DNA of 64,000 nucleotides from Methanothermobacter sp. (GCF_030055435.1 NZ_JASFYG010000001.1:82154-146153); one strand, 5' to 3'. Positions 11,065 to 61,446 are shown, numbered from the stretch's first letter. A program made the numbers and translations. The notes: a model not told the origin generated them from the sequence alone.

Positions 11065-12762
11065 TTATTTTTCTTTGGCTATTCTCCTGATGGCCCTCTC
11101 AATGAAATTGCGGAGTCTCTTCTCATCCACAGTAAATTCACCAGGCCTCATGGGGAATGCACCCACAGAAGGGACCTCTCCGGTTTCCTCATTGAATATC
11201 ACCCTTTTGCTGCCGGGGTAGAGGATGTAGGCCCCCATGCTGTGGAGTATGGCGTCCTTGTAGGTGTGCATCTTGTAGACGTCCCCATCCCTGTAACGGC
11301 TTTCAAGTTCCTCCTCGGCGTCCCGGAGGTCGATATCATAGAAGTCCTCAGGGTTAATGGTTGACCGGTACTTGGCATCAAGGTGGATGAAGTAGGTGCA
11401 CTCCCCCACATCCACGAGCAGTGAATAGTCGGGTCTGAAGGGGAGTGAATAGGAACTGCAACGGGTATTTCTGGCAAATCTTCCATTGTAGGATAGTGCG
11501 AGTTCCACATCCCCCATACTGAACCTCAGCAGGGACATCCCCCTCCTGAGCCTCACACCCCAGTCATTGAGGTCGAAGATATCAGAGGGGTTGACTGAGT
11601 CCCCGGTTATATCCTTGAGTATCCCTATGAGTTTGAAGTAGCACCAGTACTCGTAGAGTTCGCTGAGCTTCCTCTCAAAGCCCCTGATGGCATCCTCAAG
11701 TTCATCCCAGGTGAACCTCAGTGAGAGGTCCAGCATGAAGAAGTACCTGAGTATATCCCTGTACCCCTCCCTCTTCTGGAGGACCTGTGAGTTTAGGGGG
11801 AGAACACTGAGTTCACCCACATCCATGAGCCAGCGGGCAGAGAGGAAACCCCTCACATCATCAAGGAACCCCTCCAGGGAGTCCCCTATGTAACCCTCAG
11901 GGGCTGTTTCAAGTAGCCTCAGGATAAGGTCCTCAAGCGACTCAAGAAAGTACCTGTAGAACCGGTTCTCGGGGATGTCAGGGGTCTCATGGAGCCTCAC
12001 CTCCGGGAGTACCCTGGGGATACCCCCATCAATGCTGCCCGGGGTGGAAATCACGGATATGATCTCCTCAGGGTCAACGGTGGCGGCCAGTCCTGCAGGC
12101 ACCAGTTCAACCTCCCGCCGGAGGCCCGATGAGTACATCTGATTTATGTGCTCTGCAGCTGCATGGAGGTTCTCGGGCCTGAATATATGCTCAAGGATGA
12201 GGAAGTCCTCGTAGAGCGTTCCTGCAGAGTGGTCATTCACGGTGAACCTCTGGAATATTGGGGAATCGGAGTTCAGTATGAGGGATGTTATCTCATCTGA
12301 AAGGTCCGAGAGCATTGCAGGGTACTGTTCATGGTAGTTTATCTTCTTTGAGCGCACCTCGACGGGTATGGCCTCATGGAGGTCACCGGAGGAGACATCA
12401 AGGAAGGACTTGCCGGCGTAGCTCCTGAAGTTGAGGAAACCCGCCGATTTTTCTTCTAACTGAAACCTGAGCTCCTGGAATACAGCATCCCTCTTCAGGG
12501 AGGGAAGGACATCACATTCACCTGAACCCTCAAAGAGTACATGGTACTCGGTCTCCTCAAGCAGCATGATCTCTGAGAGGTTATCATAGTACGGGCAGTG
12601 CTCGATTGGGTTGAGACCCGGTCTTTCAACCTCGGGGACGTTTATGAGACTCACAGGGTAACCGTTAACCTCGATGGTCCTCTCAGGTATCTCACCTGGG
12701 GCCGGGCCGCCCCGGATCCTCAGGGTGCCAAGCTGAAACTCTATGATAATCTCGGAGTCCAT
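11065..12762 (-). CDS. mcrC: McrC-like restriction subunit (DUF2357 / PD-(D/E)XK)
   Basis: A 565-residue partner of the upstream McrB-like GTPase. The N-terminal 250 residues resemble the DUF2357 domain seen in many McrC-like partners. The C-terminal third carries a PD-(D/E)XK nuclease signature: RPDYSLLVD, then FIHLDAKYR (about residues 455-463). It should supply the DNA-cutting activity of a type IV, modification-dependent restriction complex, triggered by the McrB motor. ATG at 12762 has GGTAG 7 bases upstream; the in-frame TTG at 12768 abuts the mcrB stop and has no room for a ribosome site. Base composition is host-like (GC-rich), unlike the nearby BREX genes. Family names are assigned from motifs by eye. 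Confidence 0.82.
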   Translation of the reverse strand: MDSEIIIEFQLGTLRIRGGPAPGEIPERTIEVNGYPVSLINVPEVERPGLNPIEHCPYYDNLSEIMLLEETEYHVLFEGSGECDVLPSLKRDAVFQELRFQLEEKSAGFLNFRSYAGKSFLDVSSGDLHEAIPVEVRSKKINYHEQYPAMLSDLSDEITSLILNSDSPIFQRFTVNDHSAGTLYEDFLILEHIFRPENLHAAAEHINQMYSSGLRREVELVPAGLAATVDPEEIISVISTPGSIDGGIPRVLPEVRLHETPDIPENRFYRYFLESLEDLILRLLETAPEGYIGDSLEGFLDDVRGFLSARWLMDVGELSVLPLNSQVLQKREGYRDILRYFFMLDLSLRFTWDELEDAIRGFERKLSELYEYWCYFKLIGILKDITGDSVNPSDIFDLNDWGVRLRRGMSLLRFSMGDVELALSYNGRFARNTRCSSYSLPFRPDYSLLVDVGECTYFIHLDAKYRSTINPEDFYDIDLRDAEEELESRYRDGDVYKMHTYKDAILHSMGAYILYPGSKRVIFNEETGEVPSVGAFPMRPGEFTVDEKRLRNFIERAIRRIAKEK

Positions 12763-12768
12763 CTTCAA

Positions 12769-14919
12769 CTACCTTATGAATGATACGTAGCGCTGGATCC
12801 TCAGCGTATCCACCATTTCCCTCAGTTTATCATGGGATTCAGGGAATCTCCCCTCGCAGTGTTCCATAAGCTCATTGAGGGTGTCCCTCAGGAGCCTCTC
12901 CGGGCCGTGGATCTTGGGCAGGATCTTCTGTTTGATCTGGGCGTCCAGGTAGCGCTCCCAGTTTTCCCATTCTGTGGGTTTTCCCTCGTACACCCATGCG
13001 GCGTGCATGAATTCCAGTACCTCCATGGTGACCCTGAAACCGAAGTCAAAGCCTGCCCCCTGAAGTTTCTCATGGAAGAGGCTGAGTTCACGGACCAGGT
13101 CATCACGGATGCCGCCCAGGTCCTCGGCGTCACCTGTGTCATGGTTGAGGGGGTCCTCCAGGAATTTCAGGTCCCCCGCAGGTTTTTCAGGTTCCCCCTC
13201 CTCCATGAGGTATTCCCTGGGGTTCAGGGTCTCGAATTCTATGGTGTTGGCACGGTCGAGGACCTTGGGTGAGAACATGTAGGTTGTCTCATCCACGTTC
13301 ACGGTACCGACAACCAGGAGGTTCTCTGGGAGTGCTATCTCTGAGGGGAAGCCACAGTCAGGGTCGTCATGGAGGGGTACCGGTTCACCACTCTCGAGGG
13401 CTGAGAGGAAGTCTGAGAAGTAGCGTTCCACGTGTGAGAGGTTCATCTCATCGAGTATGAGTATGTATGGATTTTCGGGGTCCTCTGAGGCCCTCATTAT
13501 GAAGTCCAGGGCAGGTGTGCTCTGGTATTTACCTGTCATGATGTTGAGGTAACCGAATATGTGCCTCTTCTCGGTCCAGTTGGCACCCACGGGTACAATG
13601 AGATACCTCTTGCTCTCAGGGGTTGAGATGTACTGGCCGTAGAGCTGGGCGATCTTCGTCTTACCTGTACCTGAGTTACCTGTGAGGATCACGAAGGGCT
13701 TCACCTTGAGTGAGAGGAGGAAGTTCTCGATGAGTTCAGGTTTGAAGTGGTATCCCTTGTTTTTAAGATAATTGTAGTAATTAATTCCTCTACCTATTAA
13801 ATCAGGTCCTGATGGGTTGGAGATATCATTATCATCTTCTTCCGAAACTTTTTTCCTAATTTCGCTTAAAATTTTATAAAAAACCTCGTCTCCTAGGACT
13901 GGTTCAGCATTTTCAATGTCTACCTCTTTCGCTGTCCTAGCATAAATGATCCCACCGGTTTTTTCAGTGAAAACAGGTTCTTTTAGTCTGTAAACTCTGA
14001 TAATCCATAAATAAGCGTTTGATTCAATAAAAGATTTTACGTGCTTTGGACTCCATATATGGTAGCTGTTAATTTTGCCTAAAATTGTTGGGGAGATGTT
14101 TATTACATCAACAACTTTAGCGAAATATTTTATGGCAGGTAAATTGTTCTGAGTTTCAGGAATACTCTTTTCAATGACAAAATCACGGTACTCTTTTTTG
14201 AAGGCATCTAAATAATTGTCATTTTTAGTATAGTTCACCGTCGGATACAATAAAAATTCATTTATATTTGTGCCATATTTTCTTATAAGTATGGTTTGTT
14301 TTCCTTCTCCTAGAGCATCTACAATCGCTTTCCACTCATTGAGGCACTTGTTTAATTTTCTGGAAGTTTCACTGGATTTTATCCTTTTAACCTCATATAC
14401 AAAGTCCCTTATATTCTCAGGGAGTGTCTCGTCAAGGGGTCCTATTACCACAACCCCGGTTTTCCTGTCACCATCAACCACTTCTGTCCACTCGCCACTA
14501 TAATTATCCTCAAAAAATTTCTTACTGTAATTACCTCCGAGTTTGCCCCTGTGGACCACGTAGTAGTTTCCATCGAGGTCACGTGCAAATGCAGCTCCTA
14601 TTCTACGATCTATGCCTTCAGGAGGGAAGTTTATCTCACAGATGATTGTCCTGTTTTCACCCTCAGCAGGTTCATCCGTCCCAAAACCGTTCCAGTACCT
14701 GCTTCCCTCGATGAAACGGGTCATGTACCATATTTTGAGGTCCGACATCCAGTAAACCTTCCCTTTCTCTTCACCACCCTGAAAGCCCGCTCTCCCCACA
14801 ACGACTTTGTCAGCTCTTTTCATTAGAATATTTGAGAATTTACGTTGAGCCCTTTTTATCTCATCATTGTCTTGTATGATTTCTAAGATTCCCCCACTTA
14901 ATTTTTCCCCTGCTTTCAT
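12769..14919 (-). CDS. mcrB: McrB-like AAA+ GTPase with two N-terminal recognition-type domains
   Basis: A 716-residue protein. The AAA+ module is unmistakable: Walker A GNSGTGKT (414-421), Walker B ILILDEMNLS (about 485-494), and GTVNVDETTYMFSPKVLDRA, where McrB proteins carry their NTAD-type motif. McrB motors translocate DNA and activate McrC. Residues about 36-173 form one domain (DLKIWYMTRFIEGSRYW, AFARDLDGNYYVV). Residues about 190-390 (NEWKAIVDALGEGKQTILIR, EFLLYPT) resemble DUF1802. Both probably read modified DNA. GC content changes sharply at about 13745 and 14400: the middle domain is AT-rich like BREX, while the AAA+ part and first domain are host-like. The start is ATG with GGGGGTGA upstream. 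It is divergent from the BREX operon. Confidence 0.87.
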   Translation of the reverse strand: MKAGEKLSGGILEIIQDNDEIKRAQRKFSNILMKRADKVVVGRAGFQGGEEKGKVYWMSDLKIWYMTRFIEGSRYWNGFGTDEPAEGENRTIICEINFPPEGIDRRIGAAFARDLDGNYYVVHRGKLGGNYSKKFFEDNYSGEWTEVVDGDRKTGVVVIGPLDETLPENIRDFVYEVKRIKSSETSRKLNKCLNEWKAIVDALGEGKQTILIRKYGTNINEFLLYPTVNYTKNDNYLDAFKKEYRDFVIEKSIPETQNNLPAIKYFAKVVDVINISPTILGKINSYHIWSPKHVKSFIESNAYLWIIRVYRLKEPVFTEKTGGIIYARTAKEVDIENAEPVLGDEVFYKILSEIRKKVSEEDDNDISNPSGPDLIGRGINYYNYLKNKGYHFKPELIENFLLSLKVKPFVILTGNSGTGKTKIAQLYGQYISTPESKRYLIVPVGANWTEKRHIFGYLNIMTGKYQSTPALDFIMRASEDPENPYILILDEMNLSHVERYFSDFLSALESGEPVPLHDDPDCGFPSEIALPENLLVVGTVNVDETTYMFSPKVLDRANTIEFETLNPREYLMEEGEPEKPAGDLKFLEDPLNHDTGDAEDLGGIRDDLVRELSLFHEKLQGAGFDFGFRVTMEVLEFMHAAWVYEGKPTEWENWERYLDAQIKQKILPKIHGPERLLRDTLNELMEHCEGRFPESHDKLREMVDTLRIQRYVSFIR

Positions 14920-15138
14920 TGATTCACCCCCTTCATCTTTAATTAAATAAATAATAACAATAGCTATTATTTAATTGGCATTACATTTTTAAACTGTGTA
15001 TATCTCTATCTTTTTCTAAATATATATTTCTAAAATTGCCTAAAAGAAATCCTTTTTTAATTAAAAGTGCATAATTAAAGCGATGTATTTAATCTTCAAA
15101 GTTTACTAATCTAGACAATAGTCTTACATTGAAGGGGC
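14920..15138. promoter_or_regulatory. Divergent mcrBC / BREX intergenic region
   Basis: This 219-base, very AT-rich gap must hold promoters for both defence operons. The palindrome AATAGCTATT (14959-14968) has imperfectly symmetric AT flanks and lies close to the mcrB start. A TATA-like AAATATATATTTC sits at about 15018-15030, and a second AT-rich box (GCATAATTAAA) at about 15069. No longer operator was recognised. Such crowding would allow both systems to respond to one regulator, but none is encoded nearby. Confidence 0.4.
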
Positions 15139-17487
15139 GTGTATAAAATATATAACTTAAAATGGGATATGAGTGAAAACTTTGTAATTTTAACAGAAAG
15201 CCATTTTGGTGTTAGTCCTCCCAGACCAGTGTTTTTTGAGGAACTTGACCTTTTAGGTTTTGATGAATGGATGGACTATCCAAAATCTGAAGAACCATTA
15301 CTATGGGCAATTGGACGCAATTATTATTATAAGGGTGAAGTTATTGCCAAAACTAAAGGCGGAAATTTCTTTGAAAAACCAAAAATAGAATTCTTAAATG
15401 ATCAAAAAATAGAAATAGAGCCTATAAATATCAAAAAATTGGTAAAAAAGAATAAAGACAAACTTTTTGTTTTAGAAAATGAGGCGATGGACTTTATTCA
15501 AGGCGTCTATAATATTTATAAGAATGATTCTATTTTCACGGTTTCATATAGCGGCGGAAAGGACTCTCAGGTTATACTTGACCTGGTAACTCGTGTAATT
15601 CCGCCTGATGACTTAATCGTTATATTTTCAGATACCACACTTGAAAACAGCTTTACTTACGAAAATGTTCAGAGAACTAAGGAGGAGTATCTTAACAAAT
15701 ATCCCAAACTAAAATTTAAAACAGCTAAACCTCCTAAATCCGCATCGGAACTAATTAAATATGCAGGGTTACCTAGCAGGTTTAAGAGATGGTGTACCGA
15801 TGCACTAAAAACAGCTCCTTTTAAAAATCTTTTAAAGAAAATCCTAAAAGATTATTCGGAGGTCATAGTTTTTGAGGGTGTTAGATCAGAGGAAAGCTCC
15901 AAAAGGTCTACCTATTCGCGAATTGAAGGTGAAGTCAAACACTCGGCTATTATAAATGCACGTCCTATACTCGATTGGAATATAACTGAGGTTTACCTTT
16001 ATCTTTTTTATAGAGGTTTAAACTTAAACCAGGCTTATAGATGGGGTTTAAGTAGAGTCGGATGCATTTTATGCCCATATTCTTCAGTTTGGACAGAATT
16101 CATCAATTATAACCTTGAAAAAGAATCTTTAGAGCATTATATTTCGTTCATCAAAAATTACGCTAATATAAGGGGGGTTCCTGAGAAGAATGTGAAGAAG
16201 TTCATTGCTAACGGTGAATGGAAGAAAAGGGCTGGAGGCCTGGGATTAGATTTGGAATCGAACATAATAATCTCTGAAGACTCTGATAAGATTAAAGGAA
16301 CCATTAACAATCCAAGGCAAAGTTTTCTTGAATGGTGTAAAGTCCTTGGAGATCGAAATTATCGCGAAAATAAAGGCGAGTTGTCGGGTGAAATAAGGAT
16401 TGATGATAGTAAGGTTGACTTTAAAATTAAGAATTCAAATTCAGAGAAACAAATAATCGAAGTATGGAATATTGAAAATCCAACAGTTAAATCGAAGATT
16501 AGGAAGATTCTCTATAAAACAACATTCTGTGTTAATTGTGGCTTATGTCAGGCTGAGTGCCCTAATTTTGCTTTAGAAACAGTTGATAAATTGAATGTGA
16601 ATTCCAACTTCTGTAAAAAGTGTCATAAATGTCTATATTTCTCAAAAAATGGCTGTATAATTGCAGCATCAGTCTATAATTCTGTAGGGGGTATTAAGAT
16701 GAAAAAAAGAACCGGCGGAATAGATAAATACTCAACATTTGGTCTTAGGCAGGAATGGTTAAACGACTTTTTTGTTCTAGGAGATGAATGGCTTTCTAAC
16801 AATACTTTAGGGCCCAAACAAGTACCTGCCGTATTAAGATGGCTTATAGACGCTGAATTGATTGACGAAAAGAAAAAAGTTAGCACTGATCTTGGAAACT
16901 ACTTAAGAGAAATTTACAAGAAGGACAAATCATCCGCTTGGCTTATAATATGGAATAACATGTATTACAATTCAATGGTAGTTAATTGGTATTTGAATAA
17001 GATTCCTTGGGGTAAAATAACTAATAAAAACGAGTTAAAAGAAAAGATGGGCTTAGATTATCCAGAGTACAGTAAAGGCACAATAGGTAATCCCATAGAT
17101 GCCATGGTAAACATGTTTGATAACTCGCCATTAGGTGATAAATTAGGTATTGGCGTTATAGAAAAAAAGGGCAGGACAGTTAAGTCAATTCATAAAGTAG
17201 GTGTTAGTGATATTAACTCATATGTTGTAGCTTATTCCCTTTATAAACTAGCTGAAAACAGTTCAAGGAGAAACTTCACAGTATCCGAGCTTTTTGAAAA
17301 CGATTTTGAAGGAGGACCCTATAAAATATTTGGATTATCAAAAAACAATTTTGAACGAATATTAAGAGGTTTGCAAGAAGGACAGAGGATTTTAAGTGTT
17401 GATCTAGTCGCTGATCTCGATAACATCCGTTTAAGAGAAGATTTGACATCCTTAGATATAATCAAAACATATTGTGAGGGGTTATAA
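15139..17487 (+). CDS. brxP: BrxP: PAPS-reductase/DndC-like protein with Fe-S module and DUF4007-like C-terminus
   Basis: A 782-residue first gene of a BREX type 4 operon. A short N-terminal domain precedes an adenine-nucleotide alpha-hydrolase (PAPS reductase/DndC) domain with PP-loop SGGKDS (138-143), RFKRWCTDALK, FEGVRSEES and GCILCPYSS. Residues 464-506 hold eight cysteines (CxxCxxCxxxCP, then CxxCxxCx7C), like a 2[4Fe-4S] ferredoxin. From about 521 to the end, STFGLRQEWL and LGPKQVPAVLRWLIDAELI resemble DUF4007, a domain found in phosphorothioation-type systems. It probably activates sulfate or handles sulfur for DNA marking or sensing; this is inferred. GTG at 15139 follows GAAGGGG; ATG at 15169 is an alternative start. 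It overlaps brxC by one base (TAATG). Its composition is AT-rich and foreign. Confidence 0.9.
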   Translation: MYKIYNLKWDMSENFVILTESHFGVSPPRPVFFEELDLLGFDEWMDYPKSEEPLLWAIGRNYYYKGEVIAKTKGGNFFEKPKIEFLNDQKIEIEPINIKKLVKKNKDKLFVLENEAMDFIQGVYNIYKNDSIFTVSYSGGKDSQVILDLVTRVIPPDDLIVIFSDTTLENSFTYENVQRTKEEYLNKYPKLKFKTAKPPKSASELIKYAGLPSRFKRWCTDALKTAPFKNLLKKILKDYSEVIVFEGVRSEESSKRSTYSRIEGEVKHSAIINARPILDWNITEVYLYLFYRGLNLNQAYRWGLSRVGCILCPYSSVWTEFINYNLEKESLEHYISFIKNYANIRGVPEKNVKKFIANGEWKKRAGGLGLDLESNIIISEDSDKIKGTINNPRQSFLEWCKVLGDRNYRENKGELSGEIRIDDSKVDFKIKNSNSEKQIIEVWNIENPTVKSKIRKILYKTTFCVNCGLCQAECPNFALETVDKLNVNSNFCKKCHKCLYFSKNGCIIAASVYNSVGGIKMKKRTGGIDKYSTFGLRQEWLNDFFVLGDEWLSNNTLGPKQVPAVLRWLIDAELIDEKKKVSTDLGNYLREIYKKDKSSAWLIIWNNMYYNSMVVNWYLNKIPWGKITNKNELKEKMGLDYPEYSKGTIGNPIDAMVNMFDNSPLGDKLGIGVIEKKGRTVKSIHKVGVSDINSYVVAYSLYKLAENSSRRNFTVSELFENDFEGGPYKIFGLSKNNFERILRGLQEGQRILSVDLVADLDNIRLREDLTSLDIIKTYCEGL

Positions 17488-20400
17488 TGCTATATTCAGA
17501 CATAATTTCTTTAAATGAAAGATTTCAGCCAGCTTATGACTTAGAAAATGAACTAGAAGATTACTGGAAAACATTCATACCTAACAAAAGGTTTTATAAA
17601 ATTTTGGGCGAAACTTTAAATGCACTTGAAAGTAACCGTGTGGAAGATAGACAATCCATATGGATTCAGGGTACCTATGGAACAGGGAAGAGTCACGCAG
17701 CAGCAGTTATTAAACACCTCTTGTCAGATGATCCTAAAATTTTAGAGGATTTTGAAATTAAGGAACCTCAGTTAGCTGCTAGATTGAAATCTTTCAGAGA
17801 AAAAAAGAGAATATTTCCTGTTGTAATAAAAGGGACCGCTGGCATTACAGACCCCCGAGAATTTGCTCTTCTTGTTGAAAAGTCTGTTAGAAGAGCACTG
17901 GCTGAGGAAGGACATGAATTAAGCGTAAAAACTGATTTTGAAAAATTAATTGAATCTTTAAATAATGGTCATTTAAATTTTGAGAGTCTTTTTGAAGGTA
18001 CAGAAATAGAGATCTATGGAAGTAAAGATAGTATAATCACTTTACTTGAAAAAGAAGACATTGAAATACAGAGAAAGATTGAAAAGATTCTTTCTTCCAA
18101 GGGTATTATAATTGCAAGAGAGAATATAACTGACTGGCTTAAGGAAATTAATGAAGAACTAAAAATGAGGAACATAGCAGATAATCTTGTTATTTTCTGG
18201 GATGAATTCACTGGAATAATGGATTTAGAAAATTCTGGCCCCCTTTTAACTGAAGTTCAGAATATCGCGGAACTCTCTCCGAAACATGGAATATACCTCT
18301 TTATAATATCACACAGAACCCCCTATCAACTAAAAAATAAAGGCAAAGAGGAGGACATTGAAAAAATTCTTGGAAGGTTTAAGCTCCTTGAGTACGCAAT
18401 GGAAAGTGTTACAACATATCACCTAATAGAGCACACTATAAAAAAGAAGGACGCAGAGGCATGGAACTCACTTAAAAATCAAAATATAAGTAGAATAGAA
18501 GACGTTATAGCCAGAATAACTGAAATTGAAGATAATGCGACATCTTCACTTGAAAACATTTTCCCCATACACCCATATACTGCATACATAGCGACTATTA
18601 TTGCTCGTCAAATTGGGTCCACTGAAAGGAGCATATTTAAGTTCCTATATGATGATGAAAGTGGTTTTAAGGCCTTCTTATCCAACGATGTGACAGAGAG
18701 ACCATTTTTAACTGCAGATCATTTGTGGGACTTCTTCTTTAAAGATTTTGAAAGAATTGAAAGTGAAAAGGTGTATTCTATCATTGAACGATATAAATTA
18801 TACCAGGAAAAGATTGATGGACTTGGAGAGAACTATTCTGCTATTTTTAAAGCGCTACTACTTCTGAACCTTATATATCGTCTTGTTGAATTAGGGGAAA
18901 CACCGATATTAAAACCCGAAATGAAAAATATCTGCCATATATTCAAGGGTTATTTAGAAGAGGATACTATTAAGGAGGTTTTAGAATACATAGATAATGA
19001 AAAGATAGTAAACAAGAATCCTGATGGAATGTTTCTTATCTCTACTTCAACATTACCCTACGAAGAGGTAGAGAGAGAAAAGGAGTCCCTTAAAGAGACT
19101 TATAACAAAGTATCAATTGTTTTAAGTGATCAGCATAAAAAGGAATTACTAAACAGTATAAATGCTTTGAGGGAAGTTGAGACCCATATTTTTGACTTGC
19201 CTCCAAATAAGTTTAATCTACATTCCAAGCTTGAAAATGCCTTTAGTAAACACCATGCTGTGCAAATCGCATTGTTTTTGGGATTAGATGGAACAGAGAT
19301 AAACAAGATTGAGTCTTATTTAAGCGAAGCATCTAAAGAGGATCATCTACGAAATAAATTGTTAGTTGTAAGTAAAAATGAACTTGGCGAAGAAAACTTT
19401 GATAGATTTTTAGAGTATAAGGCAAGGAGCAATATCGCTGCTAGGCACAACTATATGGATGATAAAGAGGAAAATGAGAAATATGCCAAAAAGATCATTG
19501 ATAAGTGGATTAGTGAAATACAAAACGATTATTTAACCTGTTTCTTTAATGGAAATGAGTATCCTCAAATATTTTCAAAATTCGGAAACTTTATAGAGGA
19601 TTTCCTCTCAAAGGAAATTTTTACCCATGGACTCGAAACGGTTAACTCAAAGCAAAGTAAGAACATTTGGAAAACTCAAAGATCTCCAAAAACAGCAGAA
19701 ATATTTTTATTCGCGGAAAATAGGGATGATTTAGAAGAAAAAACTAAAGATGGCGCCAATAAGCCCCTGAGACTCATATTAAAAGACCATAATGAGAATT
19801 ATATAGTTGATAACGATCTTAATTTTAAAGTTGATGTAAACAGGGAACATCCGCTTATTGTAATGGATAGAGAAATAGGGAAAGCAATCGAAAATGAGGG
19901 CGACGGTGTCTTCAATTTGGGCGATGTACTCAAATTCTTGTCGAAACCACCCTATGGACTATATAAATCTAAAATTAACATAGCAGCCCTATCATTTTTA
20001 ATGAGAAAATATGTTGACCAGTTATTCGAAGCGGGATCTGGGATACAAGTTACCAAAGAGCGAATGAGGGATAAAGTCATTGAAATATTCGAATACTGGG
20101 AAAACAATAGAAACAGAGAGAAACTTAATGTTCGATGCGGTTCTGAAGATGAAAAGAAATTGATTAGATTATTATCTGATATATTTGACCTTGAGGACAT
20201 TACTAGCCTAAATGAGGTTAAATGGAAAATCAAGGAATGGGTTAAAGAACGAGATACTCCCTTATGGCTCTTTAAGTGCGGAGAGTCTAATCAGCCTGAG
20301 AAGTTTGAAAAGATATTTAACCTGATTTTTGAATTTACGAGGTCTAACGATACCGAAATAAACTCGGAGAAAATAGGGAGGATCCTCACTGAAATAGAAG

Positions 20401-20837
20401 GTTTTGAACTTGATCTTAAGAGCCATATACAAAAGGTTTTATCGCAAAAAGAAGATCTTTGGACCTTTGTATTCAGAAAATGGCTTAAATCACACCTAGA
20501 AGAAAATGGAGATATAATAATAAATTACTATGAAATAATGGACTACCTTAAGCATCATATGCAGGAGGATATAGGGTCCTGGGAAGAGAAGGATGTTAAA
20601 GATAAGGTTAAAGATTGGTATATAAGGACCGTTACCCATCCCCCTAAGCCTTCGGAACCTCCAAAGTCCTCAGAAACTGAAACTGAACCCGAGCCTGAAC
20701 TGCCTGAGAATGAAATAAAAAAAATAAAAGATAGGATTAATGAGCTAGACCCTGAAAAATTGAAGAATATACTCCGAAGGCTCGTGGATGAGAATCCTTC
20801 AATTATAGGTCCATTAAGAAGATTAATGGGGGAATAA
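17487..20837 (+). CDS. brxC: BrxC/PglY-family large ATPase
   Basis: A 1116-residue AAA-type ATPase. Walker A GTYGTGKS (62-69) is preceded by RQSIWIQG; the Walker B-like VIFWDEFTG is near residue 235. IFPIHPYTAYIATIIARQIG and ERSIFKFLYD match the conserved DUF6079/BrxC-type core that follows the ATPase. The tail is Pro/Glu-rich (about 1055-1075), then a helical end. In BREX systems BrxC is essential and forms DNA-associated assemblies with PglZ. The gene overlaps brxP by one base and has GAGGGG upstream; pglZ follows after 3 bases. AT-rich codon use (AAA, ATA, TTA) contrasts with the flanks. Confidence 0.93.
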   Translation: MLYSDIISLNERFQPAYDLENELEDYWKTFIPNKRFYKILGETLNALESNRVEDRQSIWIQGTYGTGKSHAAAVIKHLLSDDPKILEDFEIKEPQLAARLKSFREKKRIFPVVIKGTAGITDPREFALLVEKSVRRALAEEGHELSVKTDFEKLIESLNNGHLNFESLFEGTEIEIYGSKDSIITLLEKEDIEIQRKIEKILSSKGIIIARENITDWLKEINEELKMRNIADNLVIFWDEFTGIMDLENSGPLLTEVQNIAELSPKHGIYLFIISHRTPYQLKNKGKEEDIEKILGRFKLLEYAMESVTTYHLIEHTIKKKDAEAWNSLKNQNISRIEDVIARITEIEDNATSSLENIFPIHPYTAYIATIIARQIGSTERSIFKFLYDDESGFKAFLSNDVTERPFLTADHLWDFFFKDFERIESEKVYSIIERYKLYQEKIDGLGENYSAIFKALLLLNLIYRLVELGETPILKPEMKNICHIFKGYLEEDTIKEVLEYIDNEKIVNKNPDGMFLISTSTLPYEEVEREKESLKETYNKVSIVLSDQHKKELLNSINALREVETHIFDLPPNKFNLHSKLENAFSKHHAVQIALFLGLDGTEINKIESYLSEASKEDHLRNKLLVVSKNELGEENFDRFLEYKARSNIAARHNYMDDKEENEKYAKKIIDKWISEIQNDYLTCFFNGNEYPQIFSKFGNFIEDFLSKEIFTHGLETVNSKQSKNIWKTQRSPKTAEIFLFAENRDDLEEKTKDGANKPLRLILKDHNENYIVDNDLNFKVDVNREHPLIVMDREIGKAIENEGDGVFNLGDVLKFLSKPPYGLYKSKINIAALSFLMRKYVDQLFEAGSGIQVTKERMRDKVIEIFEYWENNRNREKLNVRCGSEDEKKLIRLLSDIFDLEDITSLNEVKWKIKEWVKERDTPLWLFKCGESNQPEKFEKIFNLIFEFTRSNDTEINSEKIGRILTEIEGFELDLKSHIQKVLSQKEDLWTFVFRKWLKSHLEENGDIIINYYEIMDYLKHHMQEDIGSWEEKDVKDKVKDWYIRTVTHPPKPSEPPKSSETETEPEPELPENEIKKIKDRINELDPEKLKNILRRLVDENPSIIGPLRRLMGE

Positions 20838-20840
20838 GGC

Positions 20841-23168
20841 ATGCATTCCAACCTGAAAGAGTTTAACTCTTTCAATGATCTTTTTTTGGAGATTGAGGAG
20901 GACAAAAACTCTAAAAACAGGTACCCTGTTAGATTCATTTTTTTGAATTCATTTGAGGAATTAAATGAAGTAATCGAACATTTAAAAAATTTTTCAGATG
21001 TTGTATTCCTTGATTCCCTGCTGGATAACATGCAGTGGCTTACAAAGGATAGTATCCTCCTGGAAATAAAGAATAAGTTGAAGGAGGATTCAAGGCTTGT
21101 AATTGTTCCTCTTTCAGAATTCCTCAGGTTCACCCCAACTAATGACTTTTATGGTCTTCTAAAGGCCTTGTCTGAAATAGAGACCAATGATTACTCGAGA
21201 ATATACATTCCCCTTGTCGGACTTTATAAAAGATTTAAGAAGGAGTTTATTGATGAATTCTACAGAAAAGACGAATGGGCTCCCATCTGGAAGCTTATTG
21301 GGGATATAGAACCTGTTACGATATATCATGCTACATTTAATTTTGATGATACGCTGCAGCTCCCAGAATTTGAAATAATCAAAAATACGACGGACTGGTT
21401 CAACTTATGGAGAAATCCAGGAACTCTGAAGGTTCTTTCTTTTTCAAAGGTTATTCAGGTTTTTCATTCTAAATGGCTTCCTGACGAAATATTTAACTTA
21501 AAAATTATAAAGAATCAAAAGGAGTTCGTCGAGACAATATTTGGTGAAAAATTTGAATTGCCTTTTTATGAAAAAGATTCTAATTATTGGAATAGACTTA
21601 TCAAGATATTCAATAAGAGAGGTGTTGTAAGTACGACATCTTTGATTAAGGATCATTTTAATATTATGGATTTGAATAAATTAAAGGCCGCTGATTTTGT
21701 GGAATACTTCTTAAGTGAACCAGACAAATTTTATAAGTGGATCTTAAAGAATTATGTTTCACAATTTTTAGAGGATAAAATATATCTAAAACACTGCTTT
21801 ACCAAAATGGATGGCCTAGAAAATAGTGAACTAATTGAATTACTTTGGCTTGAAATATTCGGCCTTGAAAACATTGAAAGCTTCTATCTTGAGAGGAAAG
21901 AGATATTAAAAAGGATTCCGAAGATAGATGAGAGTAAAATTAAAGGTGCTTTGGAAAGGATCAAAGATCTTCCTCTAAAAGATCAGACACCTTATATTAC
22001 GGGAATATCCACAGCCGAAAAAGAATTTGTTATAAATAATGTCATGGAAATGGATTTAGGATCCATTAGACATCATCTAAAGGACTGTTTTCCTGAACTC
22101 TACTCTTATTATGGTTGGGATAATTTAAAGCCCATATTGAATTCTGATGGATGGTTATTAGAATATTTCAAAGAGTACAATATGTGCAAAATTAGGAATG
22201 ATTTCTCGGAAAATTTAAAATCACTTATTGAAGAAAAGAATAAAGACAAGAATTCCTTTTTTGATTGGTTTTATACTATTGAAAAGCCCAAAATAGATCC
22301 AAATGGAGTTAATTATTGGATTGATGGTCTGGGTGCCGAGTGGCTTCCATTTGTGTATTATTTGCTAGATGAATATCTAGGCGAAAACTATTTAGTTGAA
22401 GCACAAATTTGTCGCGTTGATTTACCAAGCATTACAAAATGTAACAAATATCCTTTTGAGAAATTTGGGGATCTAGACGGCTATATACACAATAACCATT
22501 ATAAACATCCGAAAACGTTAATAGAAGAACTTGAAATAATTAAACAGATCATAAAGAAAATTAAAGATGAAATCACCATTAACGACCATGGGGTTATCAA
22601 CATCTACTCAGACCATGGGTTTAGCTTTTTGACTTTAAGTAAGTTTAATGATAAAATTCTTGATTTTGATGATGCCCAGCATGAGGGCAGATACCTCTGG
22701 ATGGATAATAATGAGGACTTGAATGATAAATATTATATAACTTTAAAGTCTGAATGCTCCGATAAAAACGTTTTAGTGGCATTAAAGCATGTTTCGTTAT
22801 CTAATGTACCATCTAGGGAGACACACGGAGGCGCAACTCCTGAAGAAGTTCTAGTTCCATATTTCAGAATAATAAAGGCTGGAGAAGAAGTCACTTACAC
22901 CCTTGAAACAGCTGAATTAGATGCTGATATCAGTAATCCCGTGGTCACTTTCAGATTATCCCCCGTTCCAACTAAAATACCAGAAGCTTTAATTGAAAAC
23001 AAAACCTTGGTTGTCGAAAATAGGGGCGATGGTTATTACCAGGTAGATCTATCACAGTTAGGTGACCTAAGACCACAGTTATATAAAATCAAGTTAAAAA
23101 TTAATAAACAAACATTGGATCTTAGGGTTAATTTAAAAGGAGGATTTAGGGAGAGGGAGCTTATATGA
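20841..23168 (+). CDS. pglZ: PglZ, alkaline-phosphatase-superfamily BREX protein
   Basis: A 775-residue protein. The hallmark PglZ domain occupies roughly residues 480-660: NYWIDGLGAEWLPFVYYLL (Asp 495 in the usual first metal-site position), then NDHGV (about 582) and IYSDHGFSF (Asp 591-His 592), the paired metal-binding Asp/His of the alkaline phosphatase superfamily. RETHGGATPEEVLVPYF follows, as in other PglZ proteins. The N-terminal half is a helical region without recognised motif, and the C-terminus is beta-rich. PglZ is the one protein common to all BREX types; in some it acts as a nuclease or phosphodiesterase. It begins 3 bases after brxC, and its stop overlaps the brxL start (ATGA). 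Confidence 0.93.
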   Translation: MHSNLKEFNSFNDLFLEIEEDKNSKNRYPVRFIFLNSFEELNEVIEHLKNFSDVVFLDSLLDNMQWLTKDSILLEIKNKLKEDSRLVIVPLSEFLRFTPTNDFYGLLKALSEIETNDYSRIYIPLVGLYKRFKKEFIDEFYRKDEWAPIWKLIGDIEPVTIYHATFNFDDTLQLPEFEIIKNTTDWFNLWRNPGTLKVLSFSKVIQVFHSKWLPDEIFNLKIIKNQKEFVETIFGEKFELPFYEKDSNYWNRLIKIFNKRGVVSTTSLIKDHFNIMDLNKLKAADFVEYFLSEPDKFYKWILKNYVSQFLEDKIYLKHCFTKMDGLENSELIELLWLEIFGLENIESFYLERKEILKRIPKIDESKIKGALERIKDLPLKDQTPYITGISTAEKEFVINNVMEMDLGSIRHHLKDCFPELYSYYGWDNLKPILNSDGWLLEYFKEYNMCKIRNDFSENLKSLIEEKNKDKNSFFDWFYTIEKPKIDPNGVNYWIDGLGAEWLPFVYYLLDEYLGENYLVEAQICRVDLPSITKCNKYPFEKFGDLDGYIHNNHYKHPKTLIEELEIIKQIIKKIKDEITINDHGVINIYSDHGFSFLTLSKFNDKILDFDDAQHEGRYLWMDNNEDLNDKYYITLKSECSDKNVLVALKHVSLSNVPSRETHGGATPEEVLVPYFRIIKAGEEVTYTLETAELDADISNPVVTFRLSPVPTKIPEALIENKTLVVENRGDGYYQVDLSQLGDLRPQLYKIKLKINKQTLDLRVNLKGGFRERELI

Positions 23169-24595
23169 ACATGCTTGACTTTAAAATTAAAGAGAAATTT
23201 CCAATGGAATCTGTTCTAAAGAATCCTGAGATATACGGTGTATTCTCAGGATATAATCTACCCTCCTTCGTAAAGGACTGGTTAATCCAGAGGAACAGCA
23301 CTCAAGAGGGAAAAATTGATGAAGAAAATTTGAGACTCTTTTTAAACAGGCATATAGCTCAAAAAAATAAAAAAATTATTAAAGGGACATTAATTAATGA
23401 TTACATCCCTATAACCTTATTGTCAAGGATTATAATTGAACCGGATATAAGGAGTGGTGTTATAAAATTTTCTATTCCTGATTTAGGGATCGGTCCTAAT
23501 GAGGGTATAGTTCCAAACTATATTGCTGAGAAGCACCCCGAATTGAAAGGTGGAGAGGTTTGGGGTGTAGTAAAACTTTCATATAGTCCTCCAGATAATG
23601 GGAAAATGGGCTTTATAGAGATAGTAGATTATAAGTCATTCAAACCCTATGAAGTTGATCTGGAATATTTCAAACAAAAGAGGAATGACTTCACAATTGC
23701 AGAATGGATTGATTTGTTGATTAGGTCAATGGAGTACAATCCAGAGGGCTTTGAAAGTCTACAACAGAAACTTCTCTTTATATCAAGGTTGCTGATTTTT
23801 GTAGAACCAAATCTTAACATGTTTGAATTGGCCCCCAAGGGGACTGGAAAATCCTATGTTTTCAATAACCTGAGCAAATACGGATGGGTAATCAGTGGCG
23901 GCGTTATAAGTAGAGCCAAACTTTTGTATGACATTTCAAGAAAAACTCCTGGATTACTAACTCTTTACGATTTTGTTGCGATAGATGAAGTTGAAACAAT
24001 AAAATTTACAGATGAAAGTGAGTTACGTGGCGCCTTAAAGAATTACTTAGAATCAGGTACATTTTCTGTGGCTAATTATAAAGGTGAATCCTCAGCAGGT
24101 TTAATGGTCCTTGGAAACATTCCCCTTACACAGGAAAGGAAACCCGTTGATAACAGGTACTTTGCTAATTTACACAAGTTTTTCAATGACCCCGCACTCT
24201 TGGATAGGTTCCATGGGTTTATTGAAGGATGGAAACTTCCTAGAATGAGAGAAGATCTTATAATAAGGGGGTATGCTCTAAATGTGGAGTATTTCTCAGA
24301 GATTCTACATGAACTTAGGACAGACTCTCAATTCAGAAATATAGTCGAAAAACTAGTTCATGTGCCTAAAGATGCAGATACAAGGGATAAAAATGCTATA
24401 ATTAAATTGGCAACAGCTTACCTTAAGTTGATATTTCCCCATGTGAAGCATCCTGAGAATATAGACAAGAAAGATTTTGAAATGTATTGCCTTGATCCGG
24501 CCATTAAAATGAGGGAAATAATAAAAACACAGATAAGTTACATTGATCCTGAATTTTCAAGGGAAGTCCCTAATATTAAAATAAAAGATTATTGA
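23165..24595 (+). CDS. brxL: BrxL, short form (MCM-like AAA+ without Lon-like tail)
   Basis: A 476-residue last gene of the operon. The N-terminal portion (EKFPMESVLKNPEIYGVF, LPSFVKDWLI) and the region around IPLTLLSRIII resemble BrxL. The ATPase has Walker A APKGTGKS (K229) and Walker B FVAIDEVETIKF (about D272), and LMVLGNIPL in the sensor position. BrxL proteins of type 1 BREX are about 680-700 residues with a C-terminal Lon-protease-like domain. Here the protein stops shortly after a helical lid (about 400-476) and no Lon-like Ser-Lys region is seen. Bases after the stop do not continue the frame, so it is a short form rather than an obvious truncation. It is translationally coupled to pglZ. 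Confidence 0.88.
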   Translation: MNMLDFKIKEKFPMESVLKNPEIYGVFSGYNLPSFVKDWLIQRNSTQEGKIDEENLRLFLNRHIAQKNKKIIKGTLINDYIPITLLSRIIIEPDIRSGVIKFSIPDLGIGPNEGIVPNYIAEKHPELKGGEVWGVVKLSYSPPDNGKMGFIEIVDYKSFKPYEVDLEYFKQKRNDFTIAEWIDLLIRSMEYNPEGFESLQQKLLFISRLLIFVEPNLNMFELAPKGTGKSYVFNNLSKYGWVISGGVISRAKLLYDISRKTPGLLTLYDFVAIDEVETIKFTDESELRGALKNYLESGTFSVANYKGESSAGLMVLGNIPLTQERKPVDNRYFANLHKFFNDPALLDRFHGFIEGWKLPRMREDLIIRGYALNVEYFSEILHELRTDSQFRNIVEKLVHVPKDADTRDKNAIIKLATAYLKLIFPHVKHPENIDKKDFEMYCLDPAIKMREIIKTQISYIDPEFSREVPNIKIKDY

Positions 24596-24620
24596 TTAGT
24601 AAATCACTCTTCAGGCAGTA

Positions 24621-24847
24621 CTATCCCGTATGAGCTAGGCTCCTTGCAATTAGGATGGTTGCAATGACTGCAAGGAGGTAACAATGAGTGCATAGACAAA
24701 TAGTCCTGTGAGTTCATTGCCCGCCTTGAAGAACTGTGTTATAAGTGCCTTTATGGCCTCGTTCCAGGCAAGAACCTCTATTAGGCCGAATGCAATTGTT
24801 ATCAGTGTACCCATGGTCTTAAGAACTTCGAGTTTGAATTCCCCCAT
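24621..24847 (-). pseudogene. DUF5654-like small membrane protein, frameshifted
   Basis: The first frame (ATG 24847, with GGGGTGAT upstream) encodes KTMGTLITIAFGLIEVLAWNEAIKALI and FVYALIVT, typical of the small two-helix DUF5654 proteins, then runs into nonsense (SLQSLQPS). A one-base change at about 24671-24676 restores LLAVIATILIARSLAHTG, a natural second membrane helix, ending at a stop at 24621-24623. One C appears to be missing from a short C run. The gene ends only 26 bases from the brxL stop, at the right edge of the defence island. It is either a recent loss or a sequencing indel. Confidence 0.7.
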
Positions 24848-24892
24848 ATCACCCCTTAATTGTATTATAATTTAATATATTCAGGTCTTATT

Positions 24893-58624: not shown

Positions 58625-59563
58625 CTACCTCCCCCACAATTCTGATCCGCAGATCCCGCAGAAGTTCTCATCACCTGTTAGGGGTGTTCCGCATTTATGA
58701 CACTTTAAATCGATTTCTAATTGTGAACCAGTGTGTTTTTCTATAATTTCATTGTATGCCCCTGATTCAACCCAATCAAGGATTTCCGATGCTCTCATAA
58801 CAGTCCAGGGGTGTGTTGATCCCATGATGAGGATGGTTTTCCCTACCTTATCAAGGTTATCATAATCGTACCCCTTGAATTCCCTTGCCTGTTCAATGAA
58901 TTTATCTCTGTCAATCTTGTCGAAGAAACTTTTAGGTGCGCCTGCAATTTTAATCATGGCATTTATGGCAGCATCCTCATCCTGACATGCCAGGAGACCA
59001 GCCCTGTCAGCGGTGAATTCTGACATTCTATTCCAGTAGAGGAGTGCCAGTTCAAGGCCGGTACTTATGAGTCCACCTATTCCCAGTGTAGCCGTGCCAA
59101 TGATGTCACCCGCTATGGGTATAATCTCTGCCATGATATGGTACAGCATATGGCCACTTTTGATATGGCCGACCTCATGACCAATTACATATCGCAGTTC
59201 ATCTTCTGTGAGTAAATCAATGGCACCTGAGTTTAAGATGATTATTGGGTTTTCTGATCCTATGGTACGTCCATTAACCCTATAATTCCATTCTATATAA
59301 AGTTCAGGTATCTTTTTGAGGTGAAGGGTGTTACAGACATCAAGAAGAATATCGTGAACTTCAGAAAAGTGGTTCTCATTGACCTTTATGTAGCTTCCAG
59401 TGTACTGCAATCGATAATATCTTTCTACACCATGCTTGAATATCTTACGCGTTAATGTTTCAAGTCCAGGCGTTCCCTCAAGGGCCTGGAGCGCCTGGCG
59501 GTCCAGTGGGTGCTCATATTCACTGGGATGGAGAAAGTTAAGCTTTTTTATTTCACCAGCCAT
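58625..59563 (-). CDS. M48-family metalloprotease with C-terminal zinc ribbon
   Basis: A 312-residue zinc protease. RYVIGHEVGHIKSGHML contains HExxH (about 130-134), and EFTADRAGLLAC supplies the third zinc ligand Glu of the M48/HtpX type. A hydrophobic segment (IAGDIIGTATLGIGGLISTGL) lies between them. The C-terminus adds CHKCGTPLTGDENFCGICG, a four-cysteine zinc ribbon. It is probably a membrane-associated quality-control protease. The upstream zinc-ribbon gene ends 4 bases before it (GGTGATATA then ATG 59563), so they form an operon. It is convergent with the giant surface protein gene, only 3 bases away. Confidence 0.88.
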   Translation of the reverse strand: MAGEIKKLNFLHPSEYEHPLDRQALQALEGTPGLETLTRKIFKHGVERYYRLQYTGSYIKVNENHFSEVHDILLDVCNTLHLKKIPELYIEWNYRVNGRTIGSENPIIILNSGAIDLLTEDELRYVIGHEVGHIKSGHMLYHIMAEIIPIAGDIIGTATLGIGGLISTGLELALLYWNRMSEFTADRAGLLACQDEDAAINAMIKIAGAPKSFFDKIDRDKFIEQAREFKGYDYDNLDKVGKTILIMGSTHPWTVMRASEILDWVESGAYNEIIEKHTGSQLEIDLKCHKCGTPLTGDENFCGICGSELWGR

Positions 59564-59567
59564 TATA

Positions 59568-60320
59568 TCACCTTAGTTCTTCCATGAAAATGAGGCTTCC
59601 ACCACATTCACATTTCTTTAAGAATTCCTGGGGATCATCCCATGGTCTGAGTTTGTAGTACCTGTTACACGTATCGCACACGATATAACCGCATTCATAT
59701 TCCCTCAAGGAATTCCTTTTAGAAATTATTCCCTTGAGGAGAGTGTCTGCAGAATCAATAATCTCATCAAAGGTATTAAAAAATCTGGATTCCAGTTTAT
59801 AGACTTCATGTTTGAGTTTATTCTCATAATTAGATTCCTCTTTGTTTTCTGATTTTGATTTTTTTATTGCCAGGGCTTTGCTTATATCCTCAGATGTAGG
59901 GTTTGCCTTAGCTAATGATTCGCCACATTCCTCTTTTTCTGATTTTTTTATTGCCAGGGCTTTGCTTATATCCTCAGATGTGGGTCCCGCCTTAACTAAT
60001 GATTCACCACATTCAATGCAGAACCGCTGCCCGGCTTTGGCATCTGTGCCGCAATGGGGACAACTAGAGGCTACCCTCAGGGTACTGATCCTGTTCCCGC
60101 AGTTTGTGCAGAAACGTGATTGAAGGGTTAGATTATAGCCACATTCGGGGCAGATCTTAATATTATCATGTGATGTAATCTGCTCCCCCTCAATGTGTAG
60201 ACCCCTATTTTTTACAACTGGGGCTCCACAACTGGTGCAGAATTTAAAACCATCCGGAATTTTCTCCCTGCATTCCATGCAATAAAGTGTATTGCTTGAT
60301 TCAGAGTTTCCATTAGCCAT
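59568..60320 (-). CDS. Multi-zinc-ribbon protein with internal duplication
   Basis: A 250-residue protein with several zinc ribbons: CMECREKIPDGFKFCTSCG, CPECGYNLTLQSRFCTNCG, CPHCGTDAKAGQRFCIECG, and CDTCNRYYKLRPWDDPQ with CECGG near the C-terminus. Between the third ribbon and the coiled-coil part, a 28-residue segment (SEDISKALAIKKS) occurs twice, matching the 84-base DNA period. The second copy has CGES with only one Cys, so it is no longer a full ribbon. Function is unknown; it may be an adaptor for the adjacent M48 protease. GGAGGTGTAG precedes ATG 60320. Divergent from the zinc-ribbon/SHOCT gene across a 271-base AT-rich gap. Confidence 0.78.
   Translation of the reverse strand: MANGNSESSNTLYCMECREKIPDGFKFCTSCGAPVVKNRGLHIEGEQITSHDNIKICPECGYNLTLQSRFCTNCGNRISTLRVASSCPHCGTDAKAGQRFCIECGESLVKAGPTSEDISKALAIKKSEKEECGESLAKANPTSEDISKALAIKKSKSENKEESNYENKLKHEVYKLESRFFNTFDEIIDSADTLLKGIISKRNSLREYECGYIVCDTCNRYYKLRPWDDPQEFLKKCECGGSLIFMEELR
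59857..60014. repeat. 84-bp period tandem duplication inside zinc-ribbon gene
   Basis: A 74-base block at 59857-59930 is repeated at 59941-60014 with a few substitutions, separated by 10 bases. The period of 84 bases keeps the reading frame (28 codons). High similarity indicates a recent duplication. Confidence 0.85.
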
Positions 60321-60591
60321 CTACACCTCCCCTTCAATATTCAGTTTATAATTCATAGTGACCTCCAAAATTATAAACTTTATCATGACCCCCCCTATTT
60401 GATGTATTCCATGATTTCAAGGGTTTTTCAGCAGATAAAAGAGACAATTGATTTATAAATATCCTACCTACGATAAATAATGGCCACATAAATTCAATAT
60501 TTCCCTTTTAAGTCTTGATATTTGAAGTTTTTAATAAGATTTTAATAGATTTATCACATTAATATGACATGCATAGTGTGGAGGTATTCAA

Positions 60592-61446
60592 ATGGCTGGA
60601 AAAAGATGTCCAGAGTGTTATTTTACAAATGCTGAAGCTGTCAAATTTTGTACAAACTGCGGAAAGGATCTTCAAAACCTTCTGGTATACTTTGAAGCAC
60701 CCTCTGGTGGTGATGATATTGAAATAACAAGGGATGCTGTGATAGTACATAAGAGAAGTCTAACCGGTGAAAAAAGTGGAAAAAAGGAAGTTTTTCTGAG
60801 AAGTAATATGGAGGATGTTAAAATTGGAAGGATACTATCACAGCTTACCTTTACCTACAATGGCAAATTCAGAGTATACAATCTCAGAAGAGAGTATCTA
60901 GATAGGGCAGAAGAACTTCTTCTACCTCCAAAAAATCCCGATTTTGAGGATAGCAGCGTAGATCCTTTAGAAACTGAATACGAACAAACAACCAAGCCTC
61001 TTTTTTTCTTAGATGGTAGGAATGGACAGGTTGAACTTTATGATAACCGTGTCGAGATAAAAAGAGAGGGCCTTAAGTCAATCCTTTTCTATGGAAGTTT
61101 AACCAAAGGGACAAAAACGATATACTTGCAAGATATTACAGGTGTCGAAATAAAAAAACCAGGATTCACCGTTGGATACATCCAGTTTACAGTACCTGGG
61201 GGGTTCGAGAAAACTGGTGGTGGTGTATCTTCAACCAATGATGAGAATACAGTCACATTTGATGGAGAAAAACAATATAAAATCGCCCTTAAAATAAAAG
61301 AGAGAATAGAAAAATTAAAAAGTGGAACATCCTCCACCCCCACAATAAGCGTTGTGGATGAGATAAAAAAGGCCAGCGAACTGGTAGAAAGCGGAGTACT
61401 CACAGAAGAAGAATTCGAAAAACTGAAAAAGAAACTTATCGGTTAA
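60592..61446 (+). CDS. Zinc-ribbon / DUF4429-like / SHOCT-domain protein
   Basis: A 284-residue cytoplasmic protein. The N-terminus is a zinc ribbon (CPECYFTNAEAVKFCTNCG). Two similar beta-rich modules follow, the second clearly DUF4429-like (GRNGQVELYDNRVEIKREG, TIYLQDITGVEIKKPGF, GYIQFTVPGG). The C-terminus is a SHOCT-type short helix pair (IKKASELVESGVLTEEEFEK with LKKKLIG). Such proteins are thought to bind nucleic acid or oligomerise, but no activity is assigned. ATG 60592 follows GGAGGTATTCAA. Composition is AT-rich compared with the surface-protein gene. It is divergent from the multi-zinc-ribbon gene. Confidence 0.82.
   Translation: MAGKRCPECYFTNAEAVKFCTNCGKDLQNLLVYFEAPSGGDDIEITRDAVIVHKRSLTGEKSGKKEVFLRSNMEDVKIGRILSQLTFTYNGKFRVYNLRREYLDRAEELLLPPKNPDFEDSSVDPLETEYEQTTKPLFFLDGRNGQVELYDNRVEIKREGLKSILFYGSLTKGTKTIYLQDITGVEIKKPGFTVGYIQFTVPGGFEKTGGGVSSTNDENTVTFDGEKQYKIALKIKERIEKLKSGTSSTPTISVVDEIKKASELVESGVLTEEEFEKLKKKLIG

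What the first reader, a model, noticed from the sequence alone, without database searches (positions are those of the whole stretch)
15139..24595. Complete BREX type 4 operon in a thermophilic methanogen
Four coupled genes (1-base overlap, 3-base gap, 4-base overlap) encode, in order, a PAPS-reductase/DndC-like protein, BrxC, PglZ and BrxL. This is the defining content and order of BREX type 4, the rarer form without a PglX methyltransferase. The genes are much AT-richer than their flanks, indicating horizontal transfer. How type 4 marks self DNA is a real open question; the sulfur-handling first gene suggests phosphorothioate-like marking (inference). High-temperature homologues may be unusually stable for study.
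Basis: partly seen in the sequence, partly recalled or inferred. Interest (0 to 1): 0.9.

Follow-up and report, generated by a model that had tools for sequence, protein, structure and literature searches.

The report
BREX type 4 defence operon in methanogen
This is a genuine, apparently intact virus-defence operon of a known kind (BREX type 4, which tags the cell's own DNA with sulfur) in a heat-loving methane producer; the less expected part is its site, a defence hot spot where closely related species carry a BREX-derived fusion gene beside other DNA-cutting enzymes instead.

Summary
Confirmed: window 15139-24595 holds four tightly coupled genes, brxP-brxC-pglZ-brxL, all matching BREX profiles best (BrxP 8e-259; BREX-4 PglZ 608 bits against a 140-bit cut-off), with intact catalytic residues and purifying selection. 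It is an ordinary new member of BREX type 4. The 'open question' of self-marking is largely answered: BREX type 4 is reported to make DNA phosphorothioates (Yuan et al., Nat Commun 2026;17:1717, known here through citing papers). BrxP's predicted fold agrees: a PAPS-reductase core, ferredoxin-type cysteines and a C-terminal SspB-like domain.

New here is the setting. The operon occupies a genus-wide defence hot spot: all eight genomes share the flanks while the cargo changes (BREX4, DISARM, HerA-NurA-TGT, OLD-like). Six genomes carry an McrBC-type pair. All five BREX4-free genomes (three with McrBC, two with HerA-NurA) encode an intact unusual protein: BrxP's SspB-like domain fused to the middle of BrxC, without the ATPase. 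In the three BREX4 genomes that gene is absent, truncated or a remnant. This suggests that other nucleases reuse a BREX4 target-recognition module (inference). Foreign origin is supported, but AT-richness does not prove recent transfer.

The parts
15139..17487 (+). brxP: N-terminal region, PAPS-reductase/PP-loop domain (SGGKDS 138-143), 8-Cys 4Fe-4S ferredoxin-type region (Cys 464-506), C-terminal DUF4007/SspB-like DNA-recognition domain (about 523-782)
   Evidence: PADLOC BrxP 8.2e-259 over 4-778; Pfam PAPS_reduct 1.6e-30, DUF4007 7e-7; conserved Cys and PP-loop in 16-20 sequences; AF2 model pLDDT 84.6 matches PAPS reductase 1sur and SspB 6lb9/6juf
17487..20837 (+). brxC: ORC/Cdc6-type AAA+ ATPase scaffold (GTYGTGKS at 62-69; WDEFT at 238-242)
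   Evidence: PADLOC BrxC E=0, 1071 bits; secondary match to SspC 1.7e-26; Walker motifs conserved in 21 homologues
20841..23168 (+). pglZ: alkaline-phosphatase-fold phosphodiesterase/nuclease, type 4 form
   Evidence: NCBIfam NF033445 BREX_PglZ_4, 608 bits vs cut-off 140; PADLOC PglZ 2.7e-173; D495, D546, H550, D591, H592, H662 invariant
23165..24595 (+). brxL: AAA+ ATPase of the BrxL family, short form (476 aa; the match to the 679-aa type 1 BrxL ends near its residue 458, so no C-terminal Lon-like part)
   Evidence: TIGR02688 468.6 bits vs 329; PF13337 + PF20442; solved BrxL 8emc, 2e-49
14920..15138 (.). 219-bp AT-rich intergenic region, likely divergent promoters for the mcrB-like gene (-) and brxP (+) (inference)
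   Evidence: gene layout; BREX4 homology to the G002 copy begins at 15124
12769..14919 (-). McrB-like protein (DUF1802 + AAA_5), resident neighbour in 6 of 8 genomes of the genus; not part of canonical BREX4
   Evidence: Pfam; PADLOC candidate PDC-M26A; orthologues in L032-L036
11065..12768 (-). McrC-like protein (DUF2357 + PD-(D/E)XK nuclease)
   Evidence: PF09823 2.7e-55, PF04411 1.8e-37
24606..24890 (.). right border of the exchanged block: conserved flank (DUF5654 gene 24650-24847) resumes at 24606 relative to the nearest relative
   Evidence: blastn junctions against G004 and G001; Pfam

Best explanation
The feature is a complete, probably functional BREX type 4 operon. Proposed working: BrxP and BrxC form the modification arm. 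BrxP activates a DNA backbone position with ATP through its PP-loop and places sulfur there, using a sulfur donor (probably the host's SufS-like cysteine desulfurase, possibly through its Fe-S region), at short motifs read by the SspB-like C-terminal domain; BrxC is the ATP-driven scaffold on DNA. PglZ (nuclease/phosphodiesterase) and BrxL (DNA-binding AAA+ ATPase) block unmarked incoming DNA. The cassette is cargo in a genus-wide defence hot spot, next to an older resident McrBC-type pair. Shown here: gene content, order, domain identity, intact catalytic residues, selection, hot-spot exchange. From the literature: phosphorothioation by type 4, PglZ nuclease activity (type 1). Inferred: sulfur donor, motif reading by DUF4007, activity in this host, any cooperation with McrBC.
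For: BREX profiles best for all four proteins, with the type 4 PglZ model far above its cut-off. The same gene order in most of 25 independent bacterial and archaeal loci long enough to show it, and on Methanosphaera plasmid pNP174, annotated there 'BREX-4 system phosphatase PglZ'. Catalytic motifs conserved, with no loss in the window copy. dN/dS 0.04-0.14 against the G002 copy. BrxP fold matches PAPS reductases, sulfur transferases (TtuA, LarE) and SspB. Hot spot and junctions. Host desulfurase. Literature: PMC12839542 section 34, PMC11931770.
Against: No expression, modification or phage data exist for this locus here. No desulfurase gene is linked, although PMC12839542 finds one in 56% of type 4 taxa; the host gene is only a candidate donor. 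PMC12839542 says type 4 PAPS reductases lack a cysteine dyad of DndC (not tested here), so the chemistry could differ from Dnd.
Confidence: 0.9

Rival explanations
1. The BREX4 genes work together with the adjacent McrBC-type pair: McrBC is a restriction arm that takes its target recognition from a DUF4007-BrxC module, supplied by a fusion protein in BREX4-free relatives and by BrxP/BrxC themselves in BREX4 genomes.
For: A DUF4007::BrxC(middle) fusion gene lies directly beside mcrB, in divergent orientation, in G003, G005 and G006; its model's best PDB match is SspB. The fusion is under purifying selection (dN/dS about 0.22, L032-L033). In the three BREX4 genomes it is absent, truncated to 452 aa, or a short decayed remnant (sequence), as if redundant. 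PADLOC lists the McrB as a defence candidate.
Against: Two genomes (G001, G004) have the fusion without McrBC, beside a HerA-NurA-TGT set. No McrBC pair was found in the 25 loci. Neighbours in a hot spot may be independent. The fusion could have been lost simply because BREX4 landed on it.
Confidence: 0.25
2. The operon is an inactive relic or silent cargo.
For: It is AT-rich cargo in a gene-exchange hot spot, and damaged type 4 relatives exist: in G581 brxP is split in two frames, and in G572 brxP and brxC are joined with loss of the ATPase.
Against: All four frames are open with intact motifs; dN/dS 0.04-0.14; promoter-sized intergenic region upstream.
Confidence: 0.06
3. The sulfur-type protein makes something other than phosphorothioate, for example a base thiolation, by a TtuA/LarE-like mechanism.
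For: Among the PDB matches of the BrxP model, TtuA and LarE sulfur transferases rank below the PAPS reductases; the Fe-S arrangement differs from DndC (PMC12839542).
Against: Phosphorothioates are reported for brxPCZL in gut bacteria (cited); the DUF4007 domain resembles SspB of a phosphorothioate system.
Confidence: 0.05

Closest known systems
BREX type 4 (brxPCZL; Goldfarb 2015 class; Yuan et al. 2026; PMC12839542 section 34)
   Same: Same four genes in the same order, BrxP with fused PAPS-reductase, Fe-S and DUF4007 domains, type 4 PglZ, short BrxL
   Different: No linked cysteine desulfurase; lies beside an McrBC-type pair in a thermophilic methanogen hot spot
BREX type 4 of Methanosphaera sp. 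ISO3-F5 plasmid pNP174 (NZ_CP118754.2)
   Same: Same operon; BrxP 50% identical
   Different: On a 174-kb plasmid, with a DUF262 gene downstream and no McrBC beside it
SspABCD phosphorothioate system
   Same: BrxP~SspD, BrxC~SspC (PADLOC SspC 1.7e-26, SspD 1.3e-18), DUF4007~SspB by fold
   Different: Has no PglZ or BrxL; uses SspE or SspFGH for restriction (PMC9646914, PMC8092258 abstracts)
BREX-Related Capture (BRC) systems (PMC12839542 section 36)
   Same: The HerA + TGT + DUF4007-bearing set in relatives G001/G004 at this hot spot resembles it
   Different: There NurA is present and no PglZ was seen, and DUF4007 is fused to a BrxC piece

Membership tests
BREX type 4 | BREX-4 type PglZ | tested here: met
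   NF033445 608 bits vs cut-off 140
BREX type 4 | BrxC/PglY ATPase with intact Walker motifs | tested here: met
   PADLOC 1071 bits; conserved motifs
BREX type 4 | BrxP: PAPS-reductase-like protein, usually fused to DUF4007, in place of PglX | tested here: met
   no methyltransferase found by domain searches of the genes from 11 to 29 kb
BREX type 4 | BrxL | tested here: met
   TIGR02688 above cut-off; 8emc match
BREX type 4 | gene order brxP-brxC-pglZ-brxL in one operon | tested here: met
BREX type 4 | linked cysteine desulfurase (56% of taxa in PMC12839542; not obligatory) | tested here: not met
   none beside the operon; a host SufS-like gene is elsewhere, next to ribH
BREX type 4 | DNA phosphorothioate modification and phage exclusion | not testable with these tools
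   needs LC-MS or PT-seq and phage assays
SspABCD | SspB-like, SspC-like and SspD-like components together with SspE or SspFGH | tested here: not met
   homologous domains present, but best profiles are BREX and no SspE or SspFGH gene was seen beside the operon
Dnd system | DndC best match with DndD and DndE | tested here: not met
   DndC profile only 1.7e-18 against BrxP 8e-259; no DndD or DndE among the adjacent genes
McrBC (type IV restriction), for the neighbouring pair | McrB AAA GTPase plus McrC DUF2357-PD-(D/E)XK | tested here: met
   AAA_5 6e-8, DUF2357 2.7e-55, PDDEXK_7 1.8e-37

The most novel reading that the evidence does not exclude
In this genus a BREX4 operon was cut down by an in-frame deletion to a single protein (SspB-like DUF4007 plus the middle of BrxC, without the ATPase) that now serves as the target-recognition subunit of unrelated nuclease systems (an McrBC pair, or HerA-NurA). 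The window's BREX4 sits where that subunit was lost and may supply the same function to McrBC, making a coupled phosphorothioate/McrBC defence not described before.
Probability: 0.22. Interest if true: 0.65.

Novelty: new member of a known kind. Interest (0 to 1): 0.36.

Why it matters
The operon adds a well-preserved BREX type 4 from a thermophilic methanogen genus, useful as a source of possibly stable proteins for structural work; no close solved relative of BrxP or of the type 4 PglZ was found by sequence. Its surroundings matter more. Eight related genomes show a defence hot spot with defined borders, and a reduced BREX4 fusion protein recurring beside other nucleases, which offers a natural test of what the DUF4007 and BrxC modules do on their own.

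Tried and rejected
Dnd or Ssp membership: rejected, best profiles are BREX by a wide margin. Recent transfer inferred from AT-richness alone: rejected as proof; dS between the G000 and G002 copies (1.06-1.42) is no lower than a flanking core gene (0.74), although composition differences make dS rough. A desulfurase-free sulfur route was considered because some methanogens lack desulfurase (own knowledge), but this host has a SufS-like gene; weak or no matches in the Archaeoglobi and Methanothermococcus MAGs carrying BREX4 may only reflect incomplete bins or a divergent family, so no claim is made. The hot-spot gene first taken for a second PAPS reductase proved to match only BrxP's DUF4007 arm plus BrxC. 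Searches for the fusion outside the genus (genome contigs; phylum of G152; phylum of G153; plasmids; viral contigs) gave no second DUF4007::BrxC fusion of this form; the nearest is a BrxP::BrxC joined frame in G572. The patterns and samples were limited, so absence is not established. The L102 'Bacteroidales' contig is so close to the archaeal copies that it is probably a misbinned contig (inference). The primary phosphorothioate paper (PMC12914056) is not held, so its content is taken from citing papers.

Full report
OBSERVATION. The operon's GC is 0.33-0.35 against 0.45-0.56 around it. No tRNA lies in the window.

IDENTITY. BrxP (PADLOC 8.2e-259), BrxC (E=0), PglZ (2.7e-173; NCBIfam BREX_PglZ_4 608 bits, cut-off 140) and BrxL (TIGR02688 468.6 bits) all find BREX models best. 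BrxP and BrxC also match SspD and SspC more weakly, the known kinship of type 4 with the Ssp phosphorothioate system (PMC12839542). PDB sequence searches find BrxL (8emc, 2e-49) and only weak or no relatives for BrxP, BrxC and PglZ.

INTACTNESS. Against 19-21 homologues per protein, the window copies keep the PP-loop (S138-GGKD-S143), C219, C309/C312, the eight Cys of the ferredoxin-type region, the BrxC Walker motifs, the PglZ metal-binding D/H set and the BrxL motifs. dN/dS against the G002 copy is 0.08, 0.11, 0.14 and 0.04 for BrxP, BrxC, PglZ and BrxL. AlphaFold2 models BrxP well (pLDDT 84.6); Foldseek matches PAPS reductases (1sur 1.8e-7), SspB (6lb9 6.7e-6), TtuA and LarE.

DISTRIBUTION. 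Three of eight genomes of the genus have BREX4, all at this site. In the phylum (152 genomes) full-length BrxP was otherwise seen in G130 and, cut by a contig end, in G100, with a partial match in G062; most other matches cover only the ferredoxin-type stretch. G130's contig corresponds to Methanosphaera plasmid pNP174 (same length and coordinates). Most of the 25 other loci from bacteria and archaea show the same gene order, several with a desulfurase-like gene after brxL. PMC12839542 counts type 4 in 457 taxa, 20 archaeal. So membership, archaeal occurrence and marking chemistry are known.

HOT SPOT. All eight genomes share the flanks: an HMD-related gene and a roadblock-domain gene on the left; an SNase gene and a DEAD/MZB helicase with an RNase_H_2 gene on the right (in G001 only the SNase part of the right flank matched). 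Relative to the nearest relative G004 (95-97% identical flanks) the window departs at 11073 and rejoins at 24606; relative to G003 it departs at 14830 and rejoins at 24890; the BREX4 block aligns to the G002 copy over 15124-24584 at 79% and to G007 at 68-69%. Cargo elsewhere: DISARM (G003, and by gene lengths G005), an OLD/AriA-like gene (G006), and a TGT-NurA-HerA-1417-aa AAA set (G004, and by gene lengths G001).

FUSION PROTEIN. Five BREX4-free genomes have an intact 583-624 aa protein matching about BrxP 516-782 in its first part (34-38% identity) and about BrxC 525-866 in its second (26-35%). Its model's top PDB hit is SspB (4.7e-6; only the first part is confidently modelled). In G003, G005 and G006 it starts beside mcrB in divergent orientation; in G001/G004 it follows the HerA set. 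In the BREX4 genomes it is absent (window), cut to 452 aa (G007) or a decayed remnant (G002). In a Methanococci-group genome, G572, brxP runs in frame into brxC from residue 291 with no pglZ or brxL nearby, showing how such fusions can arise by deletion. This fusion beside McrBC was not found in the papers read: PMC12839542 has no mention of McrB or DUF2357, and only three held papers mention DUF4007. The library is partial, so this is not proof of novelty.

MECHANISM. Best reading: phosphorothioate marking by BrxP/BrxC with sulfur from a housekeeping desulfurase, restriction by PglZ/BrxL. Only the genes, domains and selection are shown here; chemistry is from the literature on relatives. Coupling to McrBC is a hypothesis.

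VERDICT. Interest comes mainly from the hot spot and the recycled fusion.

Noticed in passing
L032 11989-13767 (-), L033 and L034 equivalents; L030 2040-3914 (-); L031 equivalent: Fusion protein of BrxP's SspB-like DUF4007 domain with the middle of BrxC (no ATPase), beside McrBC or HerA-NurA genes in five species of the genus
   Followed up: partly
L127 8842-12423 (-): 1193-aa frame in a Methanococci-group genome: full BrxP joined in frame to BrxC from residue 291, no pglZ or brxL nearby
   Followed up: partly
L035 10827-10946 (-): Short decayed remnant of the fusion gene between mcrB and brxP in G002
   Followed up: partly
L030 2040-13700: TGT/DpdA-like, NurA, HerA, 1417-aa AAA protein, DUF6884 and LAGLIDADG genes: a possible BREX-Related Capture variant with NurA and no PglZ
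   Followed up: no
window 12769-14919 and McrB orthologues in L033, L034, L035: The middle of the McrB-like protein (about residues 190-375, the DUF1802 region in the window) is not alignable in three of the five orthologues, while both ends are 55-76% identical: a variable, perhaps specificity, domain
   Followed up: no
window 12769-14919: The McrB-like protein carries NVD rather than NxxD at the GTPase motif, the form PMC11090510 gives for CoCoNuTs and close relatives
   Followed up: no
L129 6290-8629: brxP of G581 is split into two frames by a stop, followed by brxC: a possibly damaged BREX4
   Followed up: no
window 58625-61446: AT-rich stretch with an M48 peptidase, a zinc-ribbon protein and a DUF4429/SHOCT protein
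   Followed up: no
L118 21478-23190: DUF262 gene directly downstream of BREX4 on Methanosphaera plasmid pNP174, possibly a GmrSD-type companion
   Followed up: no
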